Of a stretch of 64,000 nt of DNA, positions 8,206 to 53,579 are shown piece after piece. The position numbers were made by a program, and so were the translations under genes. Source of the DNA: Rhizobium sp. ASV20 (GTDB lineage: Bacteria; Pseudomonadota; Alphaproteobacteria; Rhizobiales; Rhizobiaceae); assembly GCF_016429015.1 (NCBI RefSeq), contig NZ_JAELTU010000017.1, positions 1-64,000 of the forward strand, read 5' to 3'. The notes beneath the pieces are model-generated. The model searched no databases, was not told where the DNA came from, and saw nothing but the letters and a program-made list of their open reading frames with translations. Every line of letters begins with the position of its first letter. The first letter of the stretch is position 1.

Positions 8206-10986
8206 TCACTCCGTCGCTTTCTTCCGCGTGAGGATCTTCTGGTAGAACAGGCCGATGCCGATCAGGACGGCGCCGAGGCCGATGAAGGAGAGGGCGCGCA
8301 GGAAGCCTTCCAGGTTTGCCATATCGATGAGAAAGGCCTTGACGACGGCGATGAAGACCAGCACCGCGGAGGCGATGCGCAGGCTCCGCGCTTCGAACCG
8401 CGCACCAAGCCCAAGAAGGGCGATGCCGATCAGCAACCAGACAAAGGAGTAGGAATAAAGCTCGCCCTGGATGAAGTCGTTCCAGAAGGGAATGTATTCC
8501 CCCTGCCAGAAGCGGCGCACCGTCAGCGTTGCCCAGGCAAAGGCCATCACGGCTCCGGCAACGGCCAGCATGGCGACATAGGGCGGAGGCCGCCGGTTTC
8601 GTGCCAGAAGCGCCAACCCGCCATAGGCGATGGCAGGGAGAAGATAGCCGAGGAGCAGCAGGTTGAACAACGGGATCCGGCCGGTGCTCTCGCCCGTTAT
8701 AAACGGGTTCAGTCCCAGCAGATGCAGCGTCAGGATCATGATGACCGATAGCGTGCCGAGCGCCATGCTGCCGTAACGGAAGACAGGGCTTGCGGCGCTA
8801 AGGTCCAGGGCCATCAGCGTCGCGGAAGCGCCGATCGCGAGCAGCGTGTAGATCGACTGTTCGCCGAGTGTCGGAACGGCATCGTTCAGGACGCCACCGT
8901 TCATGGCATGACGCACCAGGATGGCGATCGTCAGCAAAACGAGGAACGACGCCAACGCCTGCAGCGCGCTGCGCAGACGGATGTTGGGATAGCGGCGGAC
9001 CATAAAGGCAGCCACGGCTGCAAGCGCCGCGGGAATGCCATAGCCAGCCAGCAGCATATTGAAGACCGGTGTGGTCCCAAGTTCGGACGGGTCGACGATG
9101 GTCGGCTGCCAGGCGATGCGCGCCATGGCGACGATCAAGGCTGCGACCATTGTCCAGGGCAAGACCGGCCAGTCGCGCGCCCGCCCGATGAGCAGGTAGG
9201 CGATGCCGAGAACCGGCAGCAGCATGGTCGGAACCGCGTGATGCGTAAGCATATGCAAGGCAAATACTGCGGCCGCGAAAGAGCCGGCCGCGAGAATGTT
9301 GGTCGGGAGGTTCCATCCGTCGTCTGAGCGGCGATATTGCCATTCGGCAAGCGCCAGCAGTGCGACAGCAAGCCCGATGCCGTAGAGACCATGCAGCCAG
9401 TCGAGCACCCAGTTGCCGAAATTGATAAAGCTGATCGTCGCAATCGCGAGCGGTACGATGACCATAATGCCACCCCACAGCGCTGCGAAGGGTTTTTCGC
9501 CTTCCGCAAAGCGCCGTAGAAAGAAGGTGCCGATCAGCACGAAGATTGCACCGAGGCCGAGCGATTCGTAGATCACCATGACTTGCATGCGCGCCAGCGC
9601 ATCGACGATGCTGGGATCGAGACCATAGATCCAGTTCGTCAGCAGGCCGGATATACCCAAGATACCGGTGATGGCGGAGAGGATCGCCGCCCAGGCCGCG
9701 TGCGACCGGCCGGCGCCAAAGGCGGCTACCGCTGCAATGATCGCCCCGAACATGAACACGGCATCGACGATGGGATAGCCGTAGAGAAGACTGTAACCCA
9801 GCAGGCTAAGCGAGACCGCAAGGGCGCCGATTGTCGCCGTCAATGTCAGGCCCAGTGGCGGTCGGGCGAGAAACGCGCCCCAGCCGTCAGAGCTGCGAAG
9901 TGGCGACGAGCTGGTTTCCGCTTCCGGTTCGATGGCTATTTCGTCTGGTTTCTCGGCTGTCTCGACAGCCCGATAGCGTCCCGGCCAGAGGAATATCGTC
10001 CCGCCGATCATGGCCAGCATCGAAAGCGTCACCGGCGTGAAATCCACAACCGGGCTGTTGGAGATATAGAGCAGGGGCCAGATGCTGAGTAAAGCGTTGG
10101 CAAGTGACGGCGCGACCAGCCAGCGGCGCAGCCGCGATGCAAGCAGCGTTGCGACCCATGTCAGGACGAGATAGCCGAAGAGGATCCAGGGCCGCGGCGC
10201 CGTCGATGCGATCAAGGCAGGGGTGACCATCGAAGCGAGCAGGCCAAGCCCCGCCAGCGCCTGTCCATGCAACAAGGACAGCGCCAGGGTGGCGAGGGAG
10301 ATCAGGGCGAGCAGAACGAAGGCTGTGGCCGGCCCTATAAAGCCGTAGATACCATGCGCCGCATAGGTCGAGCCGAACAGCGCGACGACACCTGCTGCCG
10401 TCAGCACCCCAGGCACCATCGCATTCTGGAAAGCATTGTCGAGAACCGGCTGGGAGCGGCGTCGAATGACCTCGCCCGCAGCAAGGAGGATCAGGCCGAA
10501 GATTGCCGCAAGCACAAGCCGGACGCCCGGGCTGAGCAGCCCGCTCTCGATCGAGTATTTGACCATGAATATGCCGCCGAAGGCGAGCGCGATACCACCG
10601 ACCCAGACGGCCCAGCGCGCGCCGATCGTGCTTTCCAGGCTTTCTCTCGGCTTCGTCGTTTCCGTCGTTGTGATCTCGGGACCGCCATCGGTGAACGTGT
10701 CGATGCTCTCGCGAGCCGCTAAGGCCGGTTCTTCGATGTCTTCCGTGGAGGAGGCTTCGATCACGGCTTCGCTTGCAGGGGTCTGCTCGGGTCCTGTCGG
10801 CAGCGGCGCAACATCATGTTGCGTTTCCACCGTCGCAATCGATTCGGATAGGTCTGCGGGGAGCACCTTGCCGGCAATGGCCTTTTGCAGCTCCTGCACG
10901 CGAATCTCTAGGCGCTTGATCCGTTGGTTGTATCCAAGCAGTATGAAAATGCCGGCGATTACGACGACAAGCGGCAGCAGTTCCAT
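8206..10986 (-). CDS. DUF2339 polytopic membrane protein
   Basis: A 926-residue protein. One helix near residues 4-19 is followed by a short coiled coil (QRIKRLEIRVQELQKAI), an acidic, low-complexity linker to about residue 115 and then an almost continuous series of hydrophobic helices to the C-terminus, probably more than twenty. This is the DUF2339 architecture; the family has no assigned activity and is found in the envelope of many Gram-negatives. The true start is ATG 10986 (a TTG precedes it). It leads the minus-strand cluster with the HD and MOSC genes. The strong GC bias leaves long empty frames on the opposite strand, which I do not regard as genes. Confidence 0.85.
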   Translation of the reverse strand: MELLPLVVVIAGIFILLGYNQRIKRLEIRVQELQKAIAGKVLPADLSESIATVETQHDVAPLPTGPEQTPASEAVIEASSTEDIEEPALAARESIDTFTDGGPEITTTETTKPRESLESTIGARWAVWVGGIALAFGGIFMVKYSIESGLLSPGVRLVLAAIFGLILLAAGEVIRRRSQPVLDNAFQNAMVPGVLTAAGVVALFGSTYAAHGIYGFIGPATAFVLLALISLATLALSLLHGQALAGLGLLASMVTPALIASTAPRPWILFGYLVLTWVATLLASRLRRWLVAPSLANALLSIWPLLYISNSPVVDFTPVTLSMLAMIGGTIFLWPGRYRAVETAEKPDEIAIEPEAETSSSPLRSSDGWGAFLARPPLGLTLTATIGALAVSLSLLGYSLLYGYPIVDAVFMFGAIIAAVAAFGAGRSHAAWAAILSAITGILGISGLLTNWIYGLDPSIVDALARMQVMVIYESLGLGAIFVLIGTFFLRRFAEGEKPFAALWGGIMVIVPLAIATISFINFGNWVLDWLHGLYGIGLAVALLALAEWQYRRSDDGWNLPTNILAAGSFAAAVFALHMLTHHAVPTMLLPVLGIAYLLIGRARDWPVLPWTMVAALIVAMARIAWQPTIVDPSELGTTPVFNMLLAGYGIPAALAAVAAFMVRRYPNIRLRSALQALASFLVLLTIAILVRHAMNGGVLNDAVPTLGEQSIYTLLAIGASATLMALDLSAASPVFRYGSMALGTLSVIMILTLHLLGLNPFITGESTGRIPLFNLLLLGYLLPAIAYGGLALLARNRRPPPYVAMLAVAGAVMAFAWATLTVRRFWQGEYIPFWNDFIQGELYSYSFVWLLIGIALLGLGARFEARSLRIASAVLVFIAVVKAFLIDMANLEGFLRALSFIGLGAVLIGIGLFYQKILTRKKATE

Positions 10987-11148
10987 CAAGGCCTCTCCGT
11001 GGGCAATCCCCCTTACAATATACCAATTGGCCTGAACGGTAAGGGTCGGCTGTCAAATTCACCCATGATTCCAGTGGATTATGTCGTGCGATCCGGTGGA
11101 GTGGTGCCGGGGAGATATTAGCTGGCCCGGATTTACCGTTTGAAAATT

Positions 11149-11167
11149 ATGGTTAATAGCCATTAAC
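11149..11167 (-). promoter_or_regulatory. CtrA-like box upstream of EF-hand gene 1
   Basis: Read on the minus strand the segment is gttaatggctattaaccat, which contains the CtrA half-site TTAACCAT and a second TTAA, but with a 6-bp instead of the canonical 7-bp gap. It sits 114 bp before the start codon at 11281. A matching box with the exact 7-bp gap is at the same relative place in front of the paralogous gene at 12507. Confidence 0.4.
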
Positions 11168-11280
11168 AATTCGTATTTACTGATAGAGCGAAGCAGCTTA
11201 TTAACGACCCATAGTTTCAACACGAATGTATTGCGTGCAAACGACGTCGCATGAGGCGGCTCCTTCCACAGGAGGTTTGT

Positions 11281-11619
11281 ATGTCCCATGTATCTTCCGT
11301 ATCCAACAGCTCCTACCCGTATCGCGGAACGCTTGCGCGTCTGGATGCCAACGGCGATGGCATGCTCAGCGGCGAAGAGCGCGAAGCTGGTCAGCGCCCC
11401 GGCATTCTGCAGGCGAACGCCAATAGCGGCACGTCGGATGGTTCCAACAACGCCCTGAGCAGCCTCATGGCCAAGCTCTTGCAAATGCCGAGTGCAGACA
11501 CGGCCTCTCAAGCCAAGCTGCCGGGGCATACTACGGCGTTCGATATGGATCTGATGTCGCCGATGGATGCCTATAGCAGTACCTATGGCCAATATGATGC
11601 CGATAGCATGGCGGCCTGA
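11281..11619 (+). CDS. small EF-hand protein 1
   Basis: A 112-residue protein starting at ATG 11281 after a perfect AGGAGG. It has one canonical EF-hand loop, LDANGDGMLSGEE (about residues 21-33), with D1, N3, D5 and E12 ligands. The rest is low-complexity and polar, ending in STYGQYDADSMAA. The N-terminus (MSHVSSV) and the C-terminal TYGQYDAD are shared with the larger EF-hand protein at 12507, so the two are paralogues. There is no N-terminal signal peptide. Rhizobial calsymin is a known signal-less secreted EF-hand protein, but homology to it is not shown here. Function unknown. Confidence 0.8.
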   Translation: MSHVSSVSNSSYPYRGTLARLDANGDGMLSGEEREAGQRPGILQANANSGTSDGSNNALSSLMAKLLQMPSADTASQAKLPGHTTAFDMDLMSPMDAYSSTYGQYDADSMAA

Positions 11620-11649
11620 TAATAGCCGCTTTCATCTGATTGTTTTGAG

Positions 11650-11684
11650 CGGCCTGCCGGATGACGGCAGGCCGTTTTATTTGT
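11650..11684 (+). terminator. intrinsic terminator after EF-hand gene 1
   Basis: A 10-bp perfect stem (cggcctgccg at 11650-11659 and cggcaggccg at 11665-11674) with a 5-nt loop is followed by ttttatttgttt. It ends transcription 31 bp after the stop codon and separates the EF-hand gene from sodC. Confidence 0.85.
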
Positions 11685-11710
11685 TTGATGCAATTCACTT
11701 TCTTGTCTGC

Positions 11711-11735
11711 GGAACACTCGTGTCCGCAATGCGTT
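11711..11735 (+). promoter_or_regulatory. sigma-EcfG (general stress response) promoter of sodC
   Basis: GGAAC at 11711-11715 and CGTT at 11732-11735 are separated by 16 bp, matching the alphaproteobacterial EcfG consensus GGAAC-N16/17-CGTT. The -10 element ends 31 bp before the sodC start codon, leaving a short leader with the GGGAG ribosome-binding site. It lies directly after the terminator of EF-hand gene 1, so sodC has its own promoter. Confidence 0.7.
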
Positions 11736-11766
11736 GGACAGCAACCACCAAAAGGGAGACCGTTCC

Positions 11767-12276
11767 ATGAGACGGACTATGATGATGGCTGCAATCTTGG
11801 CGATGGCTGCGGCCATGCCTGCTGCGGCCCAGAGCCAGCGAACGGCGACGGCCGATTTTGTCGGGCTTGACGGCAAACAGGCGGGGAGGGCAACCTTGAC
11901 CGAAGGCAGGTCGGGCGTGTTGATCGAGATGGAAGTCTCGGGGCTGCCGGCCAACCGCTGGGTCGCTTTTCACATCCACGAAAGCAGCAAGTGCGACCAT
12001 GCGCACGGCTTCGAATCCGCAGGCGGGCACTTCAATCCGACCAACGCGGAACACGGCTTCCTCGCTGCCAAGGGACCGCACGCCGGCGACATGCCAAACC
12101 AGTATGTCGATCAGGATGGCAAGCTGCGGGCGCAGGTCTACAACGGTATGGTATCGCTGAACGGCAAGAATGGCATCCGAGGTCGGACGCTGATGATCCA
12201 CGCGGAGTCGGACGATTACCGCAGCCAGCCAGTCGGCGGTGCCGGCAAGCGTCTGGCGTGCGCCGTCATCCAGTAG
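11767..12276 (+). CDS. sodC: periplasmic Cu/Zn superoxide dismutase
   Basis: Converts superoxide to peroxide and oxygen in the periplasm. The 169-residue precursor starts at ATG 11767 (GGGAG 9 nt upstream) with a signal peptide ending near AAAQS (about residues 1-23). Metal and disulfide residues are present: FHIHESSKC (Cu ligands and first Cys), GGHFNP, GPHAGDMPN (Zn ligands), IHAESDD, and LACAVI with the second Cys. Length and motif order are typical of the bacterial family. An EcfG-type promoter sits just upstream, suggesting stationary-phase or stress induction. It is sandwiched between two EF-hand paralogues. Confidence 0.95.
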   Translation: MRRTMMMAAILAMAAAMPAAAQSQRTATADFVGLDGKQAGRATLTEGRSGVLIEMEVSGLPANRWVAFHIHESSKCDHAHGFESAGGHFNPTNAEHGFLAAKGPHAGDMPNQYVDQDGKLRAQVYNGMVSLNGKNGIRGRTLMIHAESDDYRSQPVGGAGKRLACAVIQ

Positions 12277-12382
12277 CGGCACCTGTAGGCGCGATTCGAA
12301 ACCTTGCGCCAGGCTGTGCCAAGCGTCGGTTGTCTTCAGCCGGCGCGTGCCCACCGGCAATATGATTCGATGCCTGTCAATT

Positions 12383-12402
12383 ATGGTTAATGATGCATTA
12401 AC
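12383..12402 (-). promoter_or_regulatory. CtrA box upstream of EF-hand gene 2
   Basis: On the minus strand the segment reads gttaatgcatcattaaccat, an exact TTAA-N7-TTAACCAT, the full CtrA consensus. It lies 105 bp before ATG 12507. The nearly identical box in front of the first EF-hand gene supports a shared regulation rather than chance. Confidence 0.55.
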
Positions 12403-12506
12403 AGCCATCTGACCCGATGGACCAAATCCACCTATCCTATGTGCGGTTTACTAAGCGTGCCGGGGGGCAGTCGAACACGCCAATGGCGTTTGCTTAGGAG
12501 ATTTGG

Positions 12507-13172
12507 ATGAGTGGCGTTTCTTCAATTGGAAGCAGCATGACGGCTGCCTCGTATAGTCCGCTTGATAAGAACCAGGACGGCGTTGTGGATGCTCAGGAAT
12601 TGCAGGAGGCCGCTCAGTCGGGCCTGCTGTCGGCGAGCATTCTTAACGATGAGGACAGTGACAGCAGCAGCGATCCAAGCGCCACGGACATTTTCTCCGG
12701 CAATCTGGCGTCGATGCTGCTGCAGATGCAGCAGGCGGGAGCCGGACAGTCGGACTCCTCGGCCTCAAGCGACGGCTCCTCGGACCAGTCGCCGATGGAT
12801 CAACTCTTCGCCAGCCTCGATACTGATCAGGATGGCAAGATCTCGCAGAAGGAGTTCGTTGCCGGTCGTCCGAAGGACATGAGCGAAAGCGACGCCGAGA
12901 ACCTCTTCGCCAGCATCGATGCGCAGGGTTCCGGCTCGGTGACGAAGGATCAGTTTGCCGAAGGTCTCGATGCGCTCAAGTCTTCCGACTCATCCGCTGC
13001 CGACATGCTGTCGTTGGAGCCGGCGTCGGGTGGCGCCAAGCCAAGCTCGGCTAAGACAGCCGAAGATGCGGCGTTCAATGCCTTTCTGACCGAGATGCAA
13101 GATCCGTCGAGCCTTTATCAGAATACCTACGGTCAGTACGACGCCGATCAGACGAGCAATGTTACAGCCTGA
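12507..13172 (+). CDS. EF-hand protein 2
   Basis: A 221-residue acidic, serine-rich protein with an AGGAGA ribosome-binding site. EF-hand loops: DKNQDGVVDAQE (about 20-31), DTDQDGKISQKE (about 105-116) and a degenerate DAQGSGSVTKDQ (about 137-148) lacking D5. Long Ser/Asp linkers separate them. It shares MSxVSS at the N-terminus and NTYGQYDAD near the C-terminus with the 112-residue paralogue at 11281. No signal peptide or membrane helix. Likely a calcium-binding protein, perhaps exported by a signal-less route; this is inference. A CtrA-type box lies 105 bp upstream. Confidence 0.82.
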   Translation: MSGVSSIGSSMTAASYSPLDKNQDGVVDAQELQEAAQSGLLSASILNDEDSDSSSDPSATDIFSGNLASMLLQMQQAGAGQSDSSASSDGSSDQSPMDQLFASLDTDQDGKISQKEFVAGRPKDMSESDAENLFASIDAQGSGSVTKDQFAEGLDALKSSDSSAADMLSLEPASGGAKPSSAKTAEDAAFNAFLTEMQDPSSLYQNTYGQYDADQTSNVTA

Positions 13173-16510: not shown

Positions 16511-16525
16511 TTAATAAAACGTTAA
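16511..16525 (-). promoter_or_regulatory. possible CtrA box upstream of gene 16160-16417
   Basis: On the minus strand the segment reads TTAACGTTTTATTAACC, a TTAA-N7-TTAAC match to the CtrA consensus. It overlaps the stop codon of the TIGR02301 gene and is 94 bp upstream of ATG 16417. Confidence 0.4.
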
Positions 16526-53332: not shown

Positions 53333-53579
53333 ATGTTGAGCAACCCGGAGCCGGCTATTTTCTGGCTTTGCGACGGACTTAAACCGTGTTAAGCGGGCCA
53401 TGACTGTGAACAGTCGTCCGGAAAATGCAGACGGACTGGGCCGCATTCAAGGCGCTGGACCGGATCTCAATGCCGGGTTGAACGGGTTTGCCAGCGGCGT
53501 CAGGACAGATGCTGCAGGTTTGAATAGGTAGGGATGTCACAGGGCATTCTGATCAGGATATAAGGTCGAGGAAACCGAC

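What the first reader, a model, noticed from the sequence alone, without database searches (positions are those of the whole stretch)
11149..13172. EF-hand / sodC / EF-hand locus with paired regulatory boxes
Two paralogous EF-hand genes flank a periplasmic Cu/Zn superoxide dismutase. Seen in sequence: both EF-hand products share MSxVSS at the N-terminus and [NS]TYGQYDAD near the C-terminus, lack signal peptides, and have CtrA-like boxes 105-114 bp before their starts. Known: rhizobial calsymin is a signal-less secreted EF-hand protein. Inference: a calcium-binding, cell-cycle-timed pair, possibly exported through the conserved C-terminal tail, acting alongside oxidative-stress defence. I know of no described system with this layout.
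Basis: partly seen in the sequence, partly recalled or inferred. Interest (0 to 1): 0.65.

Follow-up and report, generated by a model that had tools for sequence, protein, structure and literature searches.

The report
Rhizobium calcium-binding protein gene pair
Two genes for calcium-binding proteins sit either side of a superoxide dismutase gene in a Rhizobium; the smaller one was found in nearly every Rhizobium genome examined, looks timed by the cell-cycle regulator CtrA, and has a folded RNA leader that may hide its start codon.

Summary
Two EF-hand genes without signal peptides (EF1 112 aa, EF2 221 aa) flank sodC, and both have TTAA-N6/7-TTAA boxes 105-114 bp before their starts. EF1 was found in 147 of 148 genomes of the genus. 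All 145 distinct copies keep the calcium loop, a Y.[YF]..TL.RLD segment and a Y..TYG[QE][YF] tail. No full-length copy appeared in the other genera sampled. The box lies 123-130 bp before EF1 in 145 of 148 loci, and boxes of the same pattern precede two flagellin genes, ftsK and minC in this genome, pointing to CtrA. EF1's leader is a conserved structured RNA predicted to pair with the start codon, without an Rfam match. The sodC link is weak: a terminator-like hairpin follows EF1, and five loci have EF1 without sodC nearby. Tail-driven export is not supported: a calsymin-like protein of the same genome lacks the TYGQ tail. Most likely these are short calsymin-type Ca2+-binding proteins made under CtrA, with extra translational control on EF1. 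Location, calcium binding and function are untested. New variant of a known kind.

The parts
11152..11167 (+). CtrA-type box of EF1, GTTAAT-AGCC-ATTAAC (TTAA-N6-TTAAC), 114 bp before the start codon
   Evidence: a box lies 123-130 bp (from its first T) before EF1 in 145 of 148 loci; in 673 kb of loci such boxes lie only before EF1 or at the EF2 promoter
11228..11284 (+). structured 5' leader of EF1: helix P1 (11233-11242 with 11275-11284, covers ATG 11281-11283), hairpin 11245-11258, hairpin 11260-11274 that holds the Shine-Dalgarno AGGAG
   Evidence: no Rfam match to this stretch at E<=5
11281..11619 (+). EF1, 112 aa, single canonical EF-hand loop, tail STYGQYDADSMAA, no signal peptide
11647..11677 (+). 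terminator-like hairpin (13 pairs, 9 GC) and T-rich tail after EF1
   Evidence: 5 terminator-like sites found in the stretch scanned, 2.0 expected in shuffles; similar hairpins by a simple rule in 121 of 148 loci
11767..12276 (+). sodC, Cu/Zn superoxide dismutase with a hydrophobic N-terminal segment
   Evidence: downstream of EF1 in 143 of 148 loci
12386..12402 (+). CtrA-type box of EF2, GTTAAT-GATGC-ATTAAC (TTAA-N7-TTAAC), 105 bp before the start codon
   Evidence: a box within 220 bp before EF2 in 28 of 32 loci
12507..13172 (+). EF2, 221 aa, one N-terminal EF loop plus an EF pair (second member degenerate), tail NTYGQYDADQTSNVTA, no signal peptide

Best explanation
EF1 and EF2 are short members of the calsymin-type family of rhizobial EF-hand proteins. 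Each has its own promoter region with a CtrA box, so expression should follow CtrA together with flagellins (shown: conserved boxes of a pattern also found before flagellin, ftsK and minC genes; inferred: binding and timing). EF1 is the core member of the genus. Its mRNA leader folds so that the start codon, and in the window's lineage also the Shine-Dalgarno, are paired, so translation is probably gated by an unknown signal or RNA (structure predicted and conserved; the gating is inferred). EF1 has a constant N-terminus with one Ca2+ loop, a variable linker and a constant TYGQ tail; it most likely binds Ca2+ and a partner through these constant ends (inferred). By analogy with calsymin it probably acts outside the cytoplasm or at the cell surface of motile, free-living cells (inferred, about 45%; cytoplasmic about 35%). 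sodC is an independently controlled neighbour.
For: Presence in 147 of 148 genus genomes. Loop, N-motif and tail in 145 of 145 distinct sequences. Conserved box, and the same pattern 41-227 bp before the longest-ORF starts of flagellin x2, ftsK and minC, identities by Pfam. flaA/B/C and minC are direct CtrA targets in S. meliloti (PMC4433202, passages); TTAA-N7-TTAA is the CtrA full motif, with an N6 case at podJ (PMC4287350, passages). Leader: 98.1% of cells paired against 26.7-41.0% for slid partners; RNAalifold finds the same 15 pairs; T-type leaders 95.5% against 35.2-50.0%; a model made only from L-type leaders finds the window's T-type leader as its one hit in the genome, 150 of 3210 candidates being scored. 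Family link: EF2 to a three-EF-pair relative, 51-65% identity; EF1 profile to a 177-aa relative, E=5.5e-8 (read).
Against: CtrA binding, timing, calcium binding and location are all unmeasured. The box pattern is not enriched genome-wide (10 places against 9 for the reversed control). EF1 boxes in the window's lineage have N6 spacing; the S. meliloti TSS study says spacings other than 7 bind weakly in Caulobacter, though one of five verified S. meliloti ctrA sites has N6 (PMC3616915 passage). Helix P1 is nearly invariant, so two-sided changes are few: for L-type, 30 of 500 shuffles reach the number of such pairs; for T-type the covariation score is no better than shuffles (201 of 500), though the two-sided changes are (1 of 500), and one slid version (-3) has more such pairs. 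The window leader folds only moderately better than shuffles (z -1.98, 7 of 200 as good). EF1 has a single EF hand and no confident fold (pLDDT 57). The nine calsymin-like relatives checked lack the box within 300 bp, so shared function is not assured.
Confidence: 0.5

Rival explanations
1. EF1/EF2 are cytoplasmic calcium buffers or sensors used inside the cell at a given cell-cycle stage; they are never exported, and the tail and N-terminus bind an intracellular partner.
For: No signal peptide-like stretch; CtrA-type box also before ftsK and minC; the tail profile hits only this locus, so it is not a general export signal.
Against: Calsymin, of the same family type, is reported as secreted (PMC9860679 passage; that no signal is cleaved is recalled). 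The long Ser-rich stretches with poor fold confidence are unusual for a cytosolic sensor (weak).
Confidence: 0.35
2. The EF proteins are substrates of an envelope-spanning exporter: a type I system (PrsDE or the orphan ToaDE/TobDE) using the C-terminus, or the flagellar export apparatus using the Ser-rich N-terminus.
For: R. leguminosarum 3841 has two predicted type I systems for which no substrate was found (PMC2275737 passages). CtrA-type box also before flagellin genes. The N-terminal M[ST]x[VI]SS..Y.Y kind of start is common to the calsymin-like relatives read.
Against: The C-terminal two residues of EF1 are AA, VA or AS in 137 of 145, not the [FLI][VAI] reported for RTX substrates (PMC8861453 abstract). 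No EF-hand protein is named in the passages of the 3841 supernatant study that I read, but I could not map its gene tags to EF1. No export test was possible.
Confidence: 0.25
3. The EF1-sodC arrangement is a functional unit in which calcium binding and superoxide removal act together at the envelope.
For: sodC lies downstream of EF1 on the same strand in 143 of 148 loci, one of them 1.5 kb away. By the stricter rule 27 of 148 loci, 26 of them of the window's lineage, have no terminator-like hairpin after EF1.
Against: Terminator-like hairpin in the window and in 121 of 148 loci; of the other 27, 25 still have a strong GC hairpin with at least 4 T in the next 8 bases under a looser rule without a shuffle control. 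EF1 is kept without sodC nearby in 5 loci, and the DSP-HD block downstream is also kept, so synteny is general.
Confidence: 0.1
4. The conserved leader is not a switch: it is only an mRNA-stabilising hairpin plus a conserved ribosome-binding context, or a DNA operator.
For: Primary sequence GTATTGCGTACAAAC and GGAGGTTTGTATG is nearly invariant, so covariation is low.
Against: The inner hairpins differ between the two lineages while the 9-bp start-codon helix is kept. 136 of 148 leaders hold a full 9/9 complement (G-U allowed) to their own spacer+ATG against 3.6% of shuffles (homologues are not independent). Two P1 pairs of the T-type set show a two-sided change, one sequence each.
Confidence: 0.35
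5. EF1 is the unidentified 14-kDa calcium-binding adhesin rhicadhesin.
For: Small (10.8-12.4 kDa), acidic (pI 4.05-5.1), Cys-free, one Ca2+ loop, nearly genus-wide. Rhicadhesin is a soluble 14-kDa calcium-dependent protein without a known gene (PMC4018554 and PMC11406972 passages).
Against: EF1 was found only in the genus Rhizobium, while rhicadhesin activity was reported also for Agrobacterium. The term EF-hand does not occur in the main text of the 2024 study, which found no single rhicadhesin gene.
Confidence: 0.03

Closest known systems
Calsymin (CasA) of Rhizobium etli
   Same: Signal-less rhizobial EF-hand protein (signal-less recalled); EF2's EF pair is 51-65% identical to the pairs of a calsymin-like three-pair protein; the N-terminal S..Y.Y kind of start is shared by the relatives read.
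   Different: EF1 has one and EF2 three EF loops instead of paired repeats; TYGQ tail; CtrA box absent from the nine calsymin-like genes examined; EF1 is nearly genus-wide, whereas casA is reported as expressed only during colonisation and infection. The calsymin sequence itself was not fetched.
NCBIfam NF041410, XopAW family calcium-binding type III effector
   Same: EF2 matches at E=1.4e-14 (54.5 bits), and a calsymin-like relative passes the cut-off (155.9 against 120 bits).
   Different: EF2 and EF1 are below the cut-off (54.5 and 14.7 against 120 bits). No type III effector function is implied.
CtrA regulon of alphaproteobacteria
   Same: TTAA-N7-TTAA (N6 variants) motif; the pattern also precedes flagellin, ftsK and minC genes in this genome.
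   Different: The word calcium does not occur in the main text of the S. meliloti CtrA study (PMC4433202); binding at this locus is unshown.
Start-codon or Shine-Dalgarno sequestering leaders (RNA thermometers, ROSE-like elements; recalled)
   Same: Predicted pairing of AUG, and of the Shine-Dalgarno in one lineage.
   Different: No Rfam family matches the leader at E<=5; the signal is unknown.

Membership tests
EF-hand proteins | 12-residue loop Dx[DN]x[DN]Gx[ILV]x..E | tested here: met
   EF1 145 of 145 distinct sequences; EF2 Pfam EF-hand_1 2.9e-14. EF1's Pfam score is below cut-off.
EF-hand proteins | calcium binding | not testable with these tools
   needs purified protein
Calsymin-type rhizobial EF-hand proteins | EF pair of the type EFVAxRPxDxSxxxAxxLFxSxDxxGSGSLTxxQF | tested here: met
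   EF2: 51-65% identity to three pairs of a relative. EF1 has no pair; it is linked through its N-terminal part (E=5.5e-8 to a 177-aa relative, read).
Calsymin-type rhizobial EF-hand proteins | secretion without cleaved signal | not testable with these tools
   no signal peptide-like segment, but secretion is unknown
Calsymin itself (CasA orthologue) | repeated two-EF-hand domains and adjacent TetR-type regulator (recalled) | tested here: not met
   EF1/EF2 lack repeated pairs; a better casA candidate is on contig C622 (L157), next to a divergent TetR-family gene
XopAW family (NF041410) | score above 120 bits | tested here: not met
   EF1 14.7, EF2 54.5 bits
CtrA regulon | TTAA-N7-TTAA box in promoter | tested here: met
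   EF2 N7; EF1 N6 in the window, and N7 in 101, N6 in 44 of the 145 loci with a box
CtrA regulon | CtrA binding and CtrA-dependent expression | not testable with these tools
   needs ChIP or depletion
Rhicadhesin | present in Rhizobium and Agrobacterium | tested here: inconclusive
Known Rfam cis-regulatory RNAs | match above gathering score | tested here: not met
   none over the leader

The most novel reading that the evidence does not exclude
A genus-defining, signal-less, single-EF-hand protein of Rhizobium is under two-layer control: CtrA sets the cell-cycle window of its transcription, and a previously undescribed leader RNA that pairs with its start codon decides whether it is translated, so a calcium-binding surface factor is released only in a given cell type and condition.
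Probability: 0.35. Interest if true: 0.68.

Novelty: new variant of a known kind. Interest (0 to 1): 0.5.

Why it matters
A calcium-binding protein found in 147 of 148 Rhizobium genomes examined, and not at full length in the other genera sampled, is a good candidate for a trait that sets the genus apart. Calcium is central to root attachment and nodulation, yet few rhizobial calcium-binding proteins have a known role. If CtrA times it and a start-codon-pairing leader gates it, it would tie calcium handling to the cell cycle of the free-living motile cell and add a new cis-regulatory RNA. The predictions are cheap to test in ordinary laboratory Rhizobium strains.

Tried and rejected
Rejected: (a) general tail-export signal: the tail profile hits only these two genes in the genome. 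(b) EF1-sodC operon: a terminator-like hairpin separates them in the window. (c) In-frame stops in some EF2 hits looked odd, but reading four of them shows the normal end of a GTG-started relative of about 165-175 aa, with the alignment probably running past its stop. (d) Rhicadhesin: distribution does not fit. I also looked at RL1165 and RL1339, listed as 12- and 15-kDa candidates in PMC11406972, but could not map them to this gene. (e) AlphaFold models of EF1 (pLDDT 57) and EF2 (52.6; only about residues 96-159, the EF pair, moderately confident) were too poor for a fold search, so none was run. (f) PADLOC: nothing. (g) RTX proteins of this genome, for a C-terminus comparison, are cut off in the loci held. 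(h) A start-codon helix in the EF2 leader (CCAAAUC/GAUUUGG) is no better than shuffles (z -0.06) and was not pursued. (i) Three of the four sub-threshold Rfam matches fall at 11576-11685, on the terminator region; the fourth lies inside EF1. (j) The sequences of solved structures only show EF2's EF pair to be calmodulin-like.
Full report
What is there. The window lies in one 70-kb contig (G000:C234) of an 8.29 Mb genome. The best public match to its EF1 is in Rhizobium sp. ASV8 (94% over residues 12-112). EF1 (11281-11619, 112 aa), sodC (11767-12276) and EF2 (12507-13172, 221 aa) lie on the + strand between a divergent DUF2339 membrane-protein gene and a convergent block of a weakly matched phosphatase-like (DSP) gene, an HD gene and a CAF17-type gene. 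EF1 carries one canonical EF loop. EF2 carries an N-terminal loop and an EF pair whose second member is degenerate. Neither EF protein has a hydrophobic N-terminal stretch; SodC has one.

EF1 is a core gene of the genus. A profile of three EF1 proteins finds it in 147 of 148 genus genomes; the one miss is 82% complete. I hold the locus from all 147 genomes (148 loci, because L008 and L013 are the same genome). In 145 distinct EF1 sequences every one has D.N.DG.[LIV][ST]..E, Y.[YF]..TL.RLD and Y..TYG[QE][YF]. The linker between is variable in length and sequence. Masses are 10.8-12.4 kDa, pI 4.05-5.1, no cysteine. The ORF picker used looked for the tail or the loop, so these motif counts rest on the profile search, not on a motif-free sample. 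Outside the genus, 247 genomes of the family gave 10 with any match at E<=1e-3. Four of these are the genus itself. The other six are partial matches (4.1e-6 to 6.7e-4) inside open frames of 151-619 aa; I read two, both longer EF-hand proteins with a similar N-terminus. In 249 genomes of the order only three genus members and one weak partial match were found. These searches score at most about 18-20 candidates per genome. In the public species genomes the 80 loci listed (of 105 that passed) are labelled Rhizobium or Rhizobiales bacterium.

EF2 is accessory. It is detected in 32 of 148 loci, downstream of sodC in each (and the window). Of the 80 named loci, 24 hold an open frame with its N-terminal motif, among them strains of R. 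tropici, rhizogenes, lusitanum, multihospitium, hainanense, miluonense, calliandrae and mayense. It is shortened in a few (R. freirei 99 aa, R. leucaenae 96 aa, strain SEMIA4064 149 aa). So the two genes are not conserved as a pair across the genus.

Relation to sodC. sodC follows EF1 on the same strand in 143 of 148 loci, in one of them 1.5 kb away. L099, L144 and L152-L154 have EF1 and no sodC in the 2.5 kb fetched on each side. The downstream phosphatase-like and HD genes are also kept (115 and 102 of 148, undercounted because many loci have short flanks), so the synteny is that of the whole neighbourhood. A 13-pair terminator-like hairpin at 11647-11677 follows EF1 (the scan found 5 such sites in the stretch, 2.0 expected from shuffles). 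A simple rule finds terminator-like hairpins after EF1 in 121 of 148 loci. The 27 that fail are, but for one, of the window's own lineage. With a looser rule 25 of these 27 show a strong GC hairpin (-19.8 kcal/mol or stronger) followed by at least 4 T in 8 bases; L152 has a weak one and L032 none (no shuffle control). I conclude that sodC is probably an independent transcript.

Promoter boxes. In the window TTAA-N6-TTAA and TTAA-N7-TTAA have two matches each (expected 0.07 and 0.05), and the palindrome GTTAAT-N4/5-ATTAAC occurs only before EF1 and EF2. A box lies 123-130 bp before EF1 in 145 of 148 loci; L097 has a second one at 80 bp. L119 and L124 carry a TTAC variant and L067 has too little flank. 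N7 spacing was counted in 101 and N6 in 44. Before EF2 a box is found in 28 of 32 loci; L055, L067, L070 and L137 lack an exact one. Of 174 TTAA-N6/7-TTAA matches in 673,221 bases of loci, 171 lie 70-160 bp before EF1 or EF2. The other three lie 1.09-1.11 kb after the EF1 start, at the place of the EF2 promoter. In the whole genome the pattern GTTAA-N6/7-TTAAC occurs at 10 places, against 9 for the reversed control, so it is not enriched as such. But of the 8 other places four precede two flagellin genes, ftsK and minC (identities by Pfam). The remaining four precede a TonB-dependent receptor gene, an outer-membrane protein gene, an unnamed small open frame near sdhC, and no clear gene. In S. 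meliloti flagellin genes and minC are direct CtrA targets (PMC4433202, passages), and ftsK, minC and flagellin genes carry predicted CtrA motifs (PMC3616915, passages). Caulobacter has TTAA-N7-TTAA with an N6 case at podJ (PMC4287350, passages). CtrA is therefore the likely regulator; binding is inferred. The nine calsymin-like relatives that I checked have no such box within 300 bp.

A structured leader. Upstream of EF1's start codon lies a strongly conserved element: GTATTGCGTACAAAC, an inner hairpin region, then GGAGGTTTGTATG. In one lineage (L-type) the inner part is one hairpin TCACCG..CGGTGA; in the window's lineage (T-type) it is two hairpins, the second pairing the Shine-Dalgarno. In both, CGUACAAAC can pair with GUUUGUAUG, covering the AUG. 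On 42 L-type leaders, chosen from the 76 distinct ones for diversity, the 15-pair structure is formed in 98.1% of cells against 26.7-41.0% when partners are slid. Two pairs show two-sided changes; shuffling the 3' letters reaches that number in 30 of 500, the percentage paired in 7 and the covariation score in 6. RNAalifold predicts the same structure. On 29 T-type leaders (28 distinct) it is 95.5% against 35.2-50.0%, with two pairs showing a two-sided change (1 of 500 shuffles; the version slid by -3 has three), but the covariation score is no better than shuffles (201 of 500). The most diverged T leaders (L043, L051, L068, L152, L153) break P1 pairs. 136 of 148 leaders have a full 9/9 complement (G-U allowed) to their own spacer plus ATG against 3.6% of mononucleotide shuffles, but these are homologues, not independent cases. 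A covariance model from the 42 L-type leaders only gives one hit in the own genome, the T-type EF1 leader (E 0.0013; 150 of 3210 candidates scored), and one hit in each of 7 further genomes, again with 150 candidates scored each and some of them sources of the model. Rfam has no match to it at E<=5. The window leader folds at -20.5 kcal/mol (z -1.98; 7 of 200 shuffles as good). I take this as good evidence for a conserved structured leader and moderate evidence for start-codon sequestration. A role as a switch is inference.

Family and function. EF2's EF pair is 51-65% identical to the three pairs of a 334-aa relative from another genome of the genus. That relative passes NCBI's XopAW cut-off (155.9 against 120), while EF2 does not (54.5) and EF1 does not (14.7). 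The own genome has a 273-aa relative on contig C622 with the same kind of N-terminus and EF pairs, next to a divergent TetR-family gene. A further GTG-started paralogue in four genomes of the genus (L159-L162) ends in LQAYRNTYGA plus a short variable end, so part of the tail is shared with it; L176, found by the EF1 profile, is the same type. Calsymin is reported as secreted, and casA mutation as affecting bacteroid development and nitrogen fixation (PMC9860679 and PMC6421345, passages). The family resemblance makes surface or extracellular action plausible for EF1/EF2, but nothing here shows it. Structure prediction gives no confident fold for EF1 (pLDDT 57) and only the EF pair, moderately, for EF2.

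Literature. A search for papers holding Rhizobium, sodC and EF-hand returned none. Searches on calsymin/EF-hand, secreted proteins and CtrA with EF-hand listed none whose listing or read passages describe this locus. The library holds only openly licensed papers, so absence is weak evidence.

Verdict.

Noticed in passing
L157 (G000:C622), EF gene 10279-11097 +, TetR-family gene 9135-9773 -: A 273-aa calsymin-like EF-hand gene of the own genome next to a divergent TetR-family regulator gene, resembling casA-casR as recalled.
   Followed up: partly
L159-L162, L176: A further EF-hand paralogue (GTG start, about 165-175 aa, [YH]RNTYGA near the C-terminus) in other genomes of the genus; by eye its core promoter resembles EF1's (TTGACGC..GCGCAAATCAG) but it has no CtrA box.
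   Followed up: partly
window 12415-12513: The EF2 leader could pair CCAAAUC with GAUUUGG before its start codon; not better than shuffles alone.
   Followed up: partly
L200, L213, L230: EF2 is shortened in these named species or strains, suggesting it is dispensable.
   Followed up: no
between sodC and the phosphatase-like gene in L071-L156: The distance varies widely between genomes and the stretch holds EF2 only in one group; other contents were not examined.
   Followed up: no
window 16511-16525 and 53379-53392: Two further TTAA-N6/7-TTAA matches in the window, targets not examined.
   Followed up: no
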